A stretch of DNA of 13,402 nucleotides from an uncultured Actinomycetes bacterium (GTDB lineage Bacteria; Actinomycetota; Actinomycetes; Mycobacteriales; Mycobacteriaceae). The stretch's first letter is position 1, and every line of letters starts with the position of its first letter. A program made the translations under genes and the position numbers. The stretch lies in NCBI GenBank assembly GCA_903911165.1, contig CAIWCQ010000077.1, positions 1 through 13,402 on the forward strand. Reading direction: 5' to 3'. Below are positions 9,957 through 10,769 of this stretch, piece by piece. The notes below the pieces were generated by a model that saw only the letters and a program-made list of their open reading frames with translations, did not search any database and had not been told where the DNA came from.

Positions 9957-10769
9957 ATGGTCAAGTCCCTCGGGTCGGGCACGCCCGCCGCCATTCTGAT
10001 CGCCGTTGCCGCAGCCGCGCTGAGCGCCTGTTCGCCCAACGAACCCATCGCCACCCAACCCGGCACGGTCCCGCCGGTCTGGACCGGATCACCCGCCCCG
10101 GCCGGCATGGCCGGAGAGCACGGGGGGATGGAGCACGGGTCGATGGACCACGGGGAAATGAAGCCCGGGGAAATGGAACCCGGGGAAATGAAACCGGGTG
10201 CCATGGGCGCGGGGGCGATGGGTGCGGCCGCTGCGACCGCCGACACCCTCACCGCGGAGATCAACTCCGCCAGTGGCAGCCAGGTCGCGGCGGCCACCAT
10301 CGAGTTCAAAGACAATGACGGCTTCGCGACCATCACCGTGCAGACCGTCGCACCGGGCCTGTTGAGTCCCGGCATGCACGGCATCCACATCCATGCCGTC
10401 GGCAAGTGCGAGGTGAACTCGGTTGGTCCCAGTGGCGGTGCGCCCGGTGACTTCCTCTCTGCCGGTGGGCATCTGCAGGCCGGCGGTTCTGCCGCGCACC
10501 CCGGCCACGGCGGTGATTTGAGTTCGCTGCAGGTGCGCGGCGACGGTACCGCGATGCTGGTCACCACCTCGAATGCGTTCGACAAGGCTGATCTGCTCGA
10601 TGGCGAGGGAACGGCGTTCATCATCCACGAGAGTGCGGACAACTTCGCGAACATCCCGGCGGATCGATATCAGCAGATCGACGGCGGCGCGACCGGACCG
10701 GATGCCGTCACGCTGGCCACCGGTGACTCCGGCAAGCGGGTCGCCTGCGGTGTCATCAGCGCCGGTTAG
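9957..10769 (+). CDS. sodC: lipoprotein Cu(/Zn) superoxide dismutase with Met/His repeat linker
   Basis: Extracytoplasmic superoxide dismutase anchored as a lipoprotein: signal peptide 1-24, lipobox LSAC with Cys25. After a Pro/Thr-rich spacer, residues 51-90 hold MAGEH and then seven G-x-M-x-x repeats. The SOD domain runs from about 94 to 270. Copper ligands fit His144 and His146 (HIH), His172 (GGH) and His224 (IIHE); Cys151 and Cys264 would form the conserved disulfide. His181/His184 and Asp187 sit where zinc ligands are found in other SODs, but the loop is short. The M. tuberculosis SodC has been described as copper-only, so the metal content is open. At 270 aa it is longer than the M. tuberculosis protein (about 240 aa), mainly through the repeat. 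It lies 10 nt after virR; its 3' end overlaps the next gene by 20 nt. Confidence 0.95.
   Translation: MVKSLGSGTPAAILIAVAAAALSACSPNEPIATQPGTVPPVWTGSPAPAGMAGEHGGMEHGSMDHGEMKPGEMEPGEMKPGAMGAGAMGAAAATADTLTAEINSASGSQVAAATIEFKDNDGFATITVQTVAPGLLSPGMHGIHIHAVGKCEVNSVGPSGGAPGDFLSAGGHLQAGGSAAHPGHGGDLSSLQVRGDGTAMLVTTSNAFDKADLLDGEGTAFIIHESADNFANIPADRYQQIDGGATGPDAVTLATGDSGKRVACGVISAG
10122..10226 (+). repeat. seven tandem 15-bp units encoding Met pentapeptides in SodC
   Basis: Seven in-frame 15-nt units each encode G-x-M-x-x: GGMEH, GSMDH, GEMKP, GEMEP, GEMKP, GAMGA, GAMGA. Methionine recurs at exactly every fifth residue (58 to 88). The three GGGGAAATG units (10152-10196) are nearly identical at DNA level, indicating recent slippage-type duplication; outer units are more diverged. 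Confidence 0.9.

What the first reader, a model, noticed from the sequence alone, without database searches (positions are those of the whole stretch)
10107..10226. Met/His pentapeptide repeat tether in SodC: a candidate copper-harvesting arm
Seen: between lipobox Cys25 and the SOD domain, residues 51-90 contain MAGEH and seven exact G-x-M-x-x repeats with Met at 58, 63, 68, 73, 78, 83, 88 and His at 55, 60 and 65. Known: Met- and His-rich periplasmic segments bind Cu(I)/Cu(II), and a His-rich N-terminal extension in Haemophilus ducreyi Cu,Zn-SOD was proposed to help acquire copper. Inferred: this tether collects copper for the catalytic site, or buffers toxic copper at the cell surface. The near-identical central DNA units imply recent expansion, so copy number may vary between strains.
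Basis: partly seen in the sequence, partly recalled or inferred. Interest (0 to 1): 0.7.

Follow-up and report, generated by a model that had tools for sequence, protein, structure and literature searches.

The report
Methionine-repeat tether on mycobacterial SodC
A Mycobacterium known from a draft genome carries an antioxidant enzyme whose membrane leash contains a methionine-rich repeat that most relatives lack, probably helping the enzyme catch the copper it needs, though copper binding has not been tested.

Summary
It is a derived, fast-changing feature of one branch of Mycobacterium SodCs: close relatives have 6, 7 or 8 units, while 88 of 90 tethers read from one genus sample lack three Met in step. 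It does not look neutral: between neighbouring units in three genomes, 29 amino-acid changes all miss the Met and Gly codons, while Gly codons carry 9 silent changes. Best reading (0.48): a disordered His/Met copper 'sponge' that raises copper near a lipid-anchored SodC, which in M. smegmatis is part of the III2IV2 respiratory supercomplex. Copper-stress buffering is less likely: sodC lacks the palindrome that precedes two copper loci of this genome. Oxidant trapping and a mechanical leash remain open. The principle is known (His-rich SodC N termini, Met-rich CueO domain); this Met-periodic, copy-variable form on mycobacterial SodC was not seen in three literature searches.

The parts
9957..10769 (+). 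sodC: Cu(,Zn) superoxide dismutase lipoprotein, 270 aa plus stop
   Evidence: ORF; Pfam PF00080; PDB relatives; the only match in the genome at E<=0.001
9957..10031 (+). lipoprotein signal peptide ending in lipobox LSAC; Cys25 codon 10029-10031
   Evidence: sequence; C25 invariant in 41-row alignment A1
10032..10106 (+). proximal tether, residues 26-50, with the conserved WTGSP-P stretch; no array
   Evidence: W42, T43, G44, P48 invariant; 1 and 0 amino-acid changes in the first 50 codons against L002 and L003
10107..10121 (+). MAGEH, residues 51-55; His55 lies at the spot where most relatives in the alignment also have His
   Evidence: H55 nearly invariant (90% or more of 41 rows)
10122..10226 (+). 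seven G-x-M-x-x units: GGMEH GSMDH GEMKP GEMEP GEMKP GAMGA GAMGA (residues 56-90)
   Evidence: TRF; copy-number variants and codon constraint
10227..10244 (+). short Ala-rich spacer, residues 91-96, before the SOD domain
   Evidence: sequence
10245..10766 (+). SOD domain; copper-ligand candidates H144, H146, H172, H224 (codons 10386, 10392, 10470, 10626); zinc-ligand candidates H172, H181, H184, D187 (codons 10470, 10497, 10506, 10515)
   Evidence: ligand roles inferred by alignment with Cu,Zn-SODs, no model was available

Best explanation
The array is a disordered, low-affinity His/Met copper-collecting arm on the membrane tether of SodC. Shown: the arm exists, the genome has no second protein that matches it closely, it expands and contracts by whole 15-bp units, and it keeps its Met and Gly while the other three positions of each unit change. 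Inferred: the thioethers (with the three proximal His) bind Cu(I)/Cu(II) weakly and statistically outside the membrane, hold copper beside the newly folded SOD domain and so raise the chance that the active site is metallated when copper is scarce; array length sets how much copper is held, which is why it can vary. Also inferred: the arm sits on the respiratory supercomplex, as SodC does in M. smegmatis.
For: Met and Gly constraint: 20 units from three genomes, 0 of 29 adjacent-unit amino-acid changes at Met or Gly, 9 silent changes at Gly (units share ancestry, so the simple chance of 0.0015 for Met alone is only a guide). In the 12-row clade, Met holds the array position in 69 of 71 units as I delimit the arrays, the two departures being one Thr and one Val in P0005. 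Where the Gly register shifts (P0005-P0009, xSMGP), Met spacing of 5 stays. Composition fits known copper sponges: the Met-rich CueO domain is argued to bind copper statistically through many Met, and His raises affinity (PMC11840665 passages); CopI His- and His/Met-rich segments bind Cu(II) while disordered (PMC13308877 abstract). G-D-M-G-H repeats in the genus sit on DUF305 proteins (L064, L070, L087), the domain family of the Cu(I)-binding CopM (PMC4335983 passages); this genome's own DUF305 lipoprotein lies between a palindromic box and a CsoR-family repressor. E. coli SodC activity rises with copper without a transcript change and its copper donor is unknown (PMC7478841 passages; the same paper cites an older report that copper chelation lowers sodC transcription). 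No SCO1 or PCuAC family match in this genome (the searches rang in 6 and 3 of 14 control genomes).
Against: No metal-binding data. Five of the seven units (GEMKP, GEMEP, GEMKP, GAMGA, GAMGA) have no His; tris-Met sites are weak and the source paper doubts that a Met-rich domain works as a Cu(I) receptor or fixation site (log beta 8.18); Met spacing of five is not the usual MxM/MxxM (recalled). Most tethers read have no Met array (88 of 90). Of 20 other Met-periodic ORFs scanned, only 6 belong to copper-linked families, one of them below Pfam's cut-off; EspB (2), a haem-binding MHB protein and a PPE/AAA ORF also have such runs and 10 have no family. None of the six neighbouring genes scanned (8399-12853) is of a copper family.
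Confidence: 0.48

Rival explanations
1. Oxidant sink: the surface Met residues are sacrificial scavengers that mop up peroxide or hypochlorous acid made near SodC and are re-reduced by Met sulfoxide reductases.
For: Met, with Gly, is the most constrained residue; SodC makes H2O2 and sits on a respiratory complex in M. smegmatis (PMC8361435 passages); Met oxidation in envelope copper proteins is a printed topic (PMC9302797, PMC12860648: only the abstract starts in the listing).
Against: Does not explain the accompanying His; strict spacing is not needed for a sink. No search for an exported Met sulfoxide reductase was made.
Confidence: 0.17
2. Mechanical tether: a flexible Gly-rich leash lengthened by 15-bp slippage so that SodC reaches further on the supercomplex or through the cell wall; Met is incidental or packs against a partner.
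For: In-frame 15-bp units differing in number between relatives; tether lengths vary across the genus sample; SodC is the most mobile part of the supercomplex in simulations (PMC11189923 passages).
Against: Incidental Met should have changed: 0 of 29 adjacent-unit changes hit Met although positions 2, 4 and 5 all changed. Partner packing is not excluded.
Confidence: 0.22
3. Surface copper buffer against toxicity: the arm sequesters excess copper, as CopM does, independently of SOD activity.
For: Composition; DUF305/CopM parallel.
Against: The window has no exact and no one-mismatch copy of TACCC-N5-GGGTA; five two-mismatch sites against 3.4 expected, none between 8385 and 12520. The exact box occurs at four places in the genome, 0 for the reversed control; two of them lie 17 and 11 bases before copper-type genes, the other two do not show this. 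sodC starts 10 bases after the preceding gene's stop and looks co-transcribed with it. The box is recalled as RicR/CsoR-like; other copper regulators were not tested.
Confidence: 0.13

Closest known systems
Mycobacterial SodC of the III2IV2 supercomplex (M. smegmatis 6adq/7rh5; M. tuberculosis 1pzs)
   Same: Lipobox, WTGSP tether, SOD domain; aligned to the 6adq chain over residues 11-61 and 82-270. Neighbours by Pfam: deformylase, DUF3263, LytR_C, sodC, GCS2, a small ORF without family, LON-domain gene; agreement with the M. tuberculosis Rv0429c-Rv0434 order is recalled
   Different: Residues 62-81, the heart of the array, have no counterpart in the M. smegmatis chain; the window keeps H184 of the zinc-ligand candidates, which both chains lack
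His-rich N-terminal extensions of some P-class bacterial Cu,Zn-SODs (Battistoni 2001; title and one citing sentence seen)
   Same: Metal-ligand-rich segment at the N terminus of the SOD domain, proposed to chaperone metal
   Different: Here mostly Met in strict five-residue periodicity with three His, on a lipid-anchored actinobacterial SodC, with variable copy number
Met-rich 'copper sponge' domain of CueO (PMC11840665 passages)
   Same: Many Met plus some His on a copper enzyme outside the cytoplasm; distributed weak binding proposed
   Different: CueO's is an insert in a multicopper oxidase of copper resistance; here it is the membrane tether of a dismutase
DUF305 / CopM (PMC4335983 passages)
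   Same: Met/His-rich extracytoplasmic protein; G-D-M-G-H repeats occur on mycobacterial DUF305 proteins
   Different: Separate domain family; the DUF305 of this genome follows the palindromic box, sodC does not

Membership tests
Mycobacterial lipoprotein SodC (Cu-SOD) | PF00080 domain with copper-ligand His | tested here: met
   H144, H146, H172, H224 invariant in 41 rows
Mycobacterial lipoprotein SodC (Cu-SOD) | Lipobox and WTGSP tether | tested here: met
   lipobox found by pattern in 89 of 90 loci
Mycobacterial lipoprotein SodC (Cu-SOD) | Subunit of III2IV2 supercomplex | not testable with these tools
   COX2 and cytochrome b families are present on contig C242; association itself is known from M. 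smegmatis
SodC with N-terminal metal-binding extension (Battistoni type) | Extension between signal peptide and SOD domain | tested here: met
   residues 26-96
SodC with N-terminal metal-binding extension (Battistoni type) | His-rich sequence | tested here: not met
   3 His against 8 Met in residues 51-90; so a Met-type variant, not a member
SodC with N-terminal metal-binding extension (Battistoni type) | Binds metal and aids activity at low copper | not testable with these tools
   bench test needed
Met-rich copper sponge (CueO-like, works-like claim) | Many clustered Met on an exported protein | tested here: met
   8 Met in 40 residues after a lipobox
Met-rich copper sponge (CueO-like, works-like claim) | Binds Cu(I) | not testable with these tools
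   bench test needed
RicR-type copper-resistance regulon member | TACCC-N5-GGGTA box before the gene (motif recalled; two of its four genome sites precede copper-type genes) | tested here: not met

The most novel reading that the evidence does not exclude
The array is a copper reservoir carried into the respiratory supercomplex by SodC, shared between the SOD site and the CuA centre of the oxidase, standing in for Sco/PCuAC chaperones that this genome seems to lack; array length is tuned by slippage to copper supply. My evidence does not exclude it: no SCO1 or PCuAC family match, COX2 and cytochrome b families present, SodC near the cytochrome cc head in M. smegmatis. Nothing here shows it; whether other mycobacteria also lack these chaperones was not tested; and in M. 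tuberculosis diisonitrile chalkophores already supply copper to this supercomplex when copper is short (PMC12140626 passages).
Probability: 0.08. Interest if true: 0.8.

Novelty: new variant of a known kind. Interest (0 to 1): 0.45.

Why it matters
How exported bacterial Cu,Zn-SODs get their copper is open: one paper states that no consistent strategy for their maturation has emerged (PMC8382915 abstract), another that the copper donor of E. coli SodC is not known, though CueP serves a Salmonella SodC (PMC7478841 passages). A natural series of the same enzyme with Met runs from none to eight in one genus is a ready-made test of whether a built-in arm replaces a chaperone, and would give the flexible SodC of the mycobacterial respiratory supercomplex a second possible task.

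Tried and rejected
Antisense reading: the reverse strand is open through the array (ORF 9893-10654); taken for an ordinary antisense frame of GC-rich DNA, not tested further. A general repeat of this genome: not supported, the arm's letters match sodC at E 9.9e-20 and next best at 0.05; but the three-unit DNA pattern has six matches in this genome, five of them the array itself, so one further match lies at a place that the answer did not list. Database search with residues 49-92: 3 proteins at E<=1 among 19 candidates, P0001, P0002 and P0121. P0121 looked like an arm fused to an aldehyde dehydrogenase; it reads as SodC residues 1-96 joined to a dehydrogenase end, longest contig 1,186 bases; I take it for an assembly chimera and left it out of the tree and the tether counts. 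Plasmid search with the arm: no match, but the low-complexity filter is on, so this says little. DNA pattern for three units in 396 genus genomes: 127 have a match somewhere, and the reversed control also matches in many (not counted), so the motif alone is not specific. Neutral expansion: disfavoured. Structure prediction was off, so disorder of the arm is inferred from composition.

Rows dropped: P0019, P0113 (short) and P0121, then 13 rows with SOD domains identical to another row (listed), leaving 144 of 157; L012 and L013 were not parsed; L028 is the same protein as L003. The 126-row 'rest' holds all 13 dropped duplicates, at least three of which (P0014, P0023, P0044) look like members of the 31-row clade. 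One search counts one out-of-register unit per arm (12 units) and stops before the Val of P0005; hence its printed 69 Met of 82 and my 69 of 71.

Full report
What is there. The window is contig C77 of a 3.14-Mb, 524-contig draft genome, 97.6% complete. The genus is Mycobacterium in the wide sense: genome G009 of the same genus has a contig of 6,103,712 bases, the length of the Mycolicibacterium litorale F4 chromosome found. sodC runs 9957-10769 (+). Its 270-residue product has a lipobox Cys25, a proximal tether with the conserved WTGSP stretch, MAGEH, seven G-x-M-x-x units, a short Ala-rich spacer and a SOD domain.

More than chance. No shuffle of the whole protein or of the segment, 20,000 each, gave seven Met in step. 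The DNA units of the centre are nearly identical (90% matches over three copies). In this genome the arm's letters match sodC at E 9.9e-20 and nothing else below 0.05. The looser three-unit DNA pattern matches six times in the genome, five of them this array; the sixth place was not listed and not looked at.

How it varies. 120 relatives, the best of 1,919 found, were read for their tethers. The four nearest clusters have 8, 6, 8 and 8 units; L002 has 6, and L003 has 7 of different make-up. The SOD domains of these six are 91.8-98.8% identical to the window's, so copy number changes faster than the enzyme; within-species variation was not measured. On a tree of 144 SOD domains (tethers left out), 24 rows have three or more Met in step; 22 of these lie in one 31-row clade (98/96 support) and the other two, P0025 and P0058, elsewhere. 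The label needs 7 changes on the tree (at least 4 forced by well-supported branches; 0 of 500 shuffles as low), so it was gained or lost more than once. A 12-row end clade (100/100) has such a run in all 12 rows, six or more Met in step in 7 of 12. Mean Met per tether: 6.75 in the 12, 4.21 in the other 19 of the clade, 0.98 in the remaining 126 rows (which include 13 duplicates); a His is present in 150 of 157.

A wider sample. Of 396 genus genomes, 394 have a match to this SodC. I read 90 tethers: the 30 best matches (own genome included) and 60 taken as every second row of the next 120 listed; the other matching genomes were skipped or not listed and were not read, so the sample leans to closer relatives. 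Three or more Met in step: 2 of 90 (window and G259). Three or more Met at all: 6 of 90. At least one His: 74 of 90. So a His in the tether is common in the genus and the Met array is a local addition.

Selection. In 20 units from three genomes the Gly codon changes only silently (GGG, GGT, GGA) and the Met codon never; positions 2, 4 and 5 take four or five different residues. Between neighbouring units (17 pairs), 29 amino-acid changes fall on positions 2, 4 and 5 and none on Met or Gly, with 9 silent changes at Gly. If changes fell evenly, missing Met alone would have a chance of about 0.0015; the units share ancestry, so this is a guide and not a test. In the sister rows P0005-P0009 the neighbours of Met change register (xSMGP) yet the spacing of five stays, apart from one Thr and one Val in P0005. 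I read this as an array kept for its Met (and Gly), not merely for its length.

Where the protein sits. The best solved relatives are SodC chains of the M. smegmatis III2IV2 supercomplex. There SodC is lipid-anchored, near the cytochrome cc head, and the most dynamic part in simulations; its role is called unknown (PMC8361435 and PMC11189923, passages). The window genome has the cytochrome b and COX2 families on one contig. That its SodC joins the complex is inferred.

Copper evidence. Met-rich segments are argued to act as weak, statistical copper sponges, with His raising the affinity (PMC11840665, passages), and disordered His/Met segments of CopI bind Cu(II) (PMC13308877, abstract). Among other Met-periodic ORFs of the genus (20 of the 30 found in the fetched loci were scanned) 4 are DUF305 proteins, the family of Cu(I)-binding CopM, and 2 resemble sulfocyanin cupredoxins (one below Pfam's cut-off); against this, 2 are EspB, 1 a haem-binding protein, 1 a PPE/AAA ORF, and 10 have no family. 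The motif therefore suits copper proteins but does not mark them. Five of the window's seven units have no His.

Regulation as a discriminator. An exact TACCC-N5-GGGTA palindrome (motif recalled as RicR/CsoR-like) occurs at four places in the genome, 0 for the reversed control. One lies 17 bases before a DUF305 lipoprotein that is followed by a CsoR-family repressor; one lies 11 bases before a gene starting with a heavy-metal-associated domain, by eye a copper ATPase. The third stands near a contig end and the fourth inside a long ORF. The window has none with fewer than two mismatches, and none at two between 8385 and 12520. sodC begins 10 bases after the preceding LytR_C gene. This argues against a copper-stress role under that regulator and suits a standing loading role. 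RicR's targets in M. tuberculosis as listed in PMC10961391 (passages) do not include sodC.

Mechanism. I hold it most likely (0.48) that the arm gathers copper beside a SodC that must find its metal outside the cytoplasm. No SCO1 or PCuAC family match was found in this genome, and the only match to the multicopper-oxidase family searched (PF07731) is a short frame at a contig end. In E. coli SodC activity follows copper supply without transcript change and the donor is not known (PMC7478841, passages; it also cites an older report of lower sodC transcription under chelation). Steps shown: presence, variation, constraint. Steps inferred: disorder, copper binding, transfer, supercomplex location.

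Known or new. Ligand-rich N termini on bacterial SodCs were proposed as metal chaperones in 2001 (Battistoni; title and one citing sentence seen). Here His is scarce and Met periodic, so it is a variant and not a member. Searches for SodC with 'Met-rich' (4 papers, 2 listed), 'methionine-rich' (7 papers, 7 listed) and a five-term search (88 papers, 15 listed) showed no title or abstract start on such a mycobacterial arm; apart from passages of a few, I did not read those papers.

Noticed in passing
10470-10517 (H172, H181, H184, D187): The window SodC has the loop AGGH...HPGHGGDL with a His three before the Asp, like the non-mycobacterial SODs aligned; the M. smegmatis and M. tuberculosis chains read HPASGDL / TPASGDL without it. 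18 of 87 parsed loci have it. The printed zinc-free state of M. tuberculosis SodC may be a lineage trait, not a genus trait.
   Followed up: partly
L096 2560-3480 (G000 C100): A DUF305 lipoprotein sits between ilvD (identity by eye) and a CsoR-family repressor behind a perfect TACCCCCAAGGGGTA box: a likely copper-induced operon.
   Followed up: partly
L097 1-287 (G000 C36): A 94-residue frame at a contig end is the genome's only match to the multicopper-oxidase family PF07731 (23.2 bits, profile end only); by eye it looks like a small cupredoxin.
   Followed up: no
L077, L085: Long GDMDHGDMDHG arrays in ORFs without a Pfam family; in L085 they lie beside membrane genes that by eye resemble NuoA and NuoH.
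   Followed up: no
L069, L071, L076, L078-L081, L088: Small ORFs with GMMGPG-type tails; no Pfam family in the five scanned (L069, L071, L076, L079, L088).
   Followed up: no
P0121: SodC residues 1-96 joined to an aldehyde dehydrogenase end, longest contig 1.2 kb: probable metagenome assembly chimera.
   Followed up: partly
L002, L004: Records titled Bifidobacterium breve MAG carry mycobacterial SodC with the mycobacterial tether; the titles look wrong.
   Followed up: no
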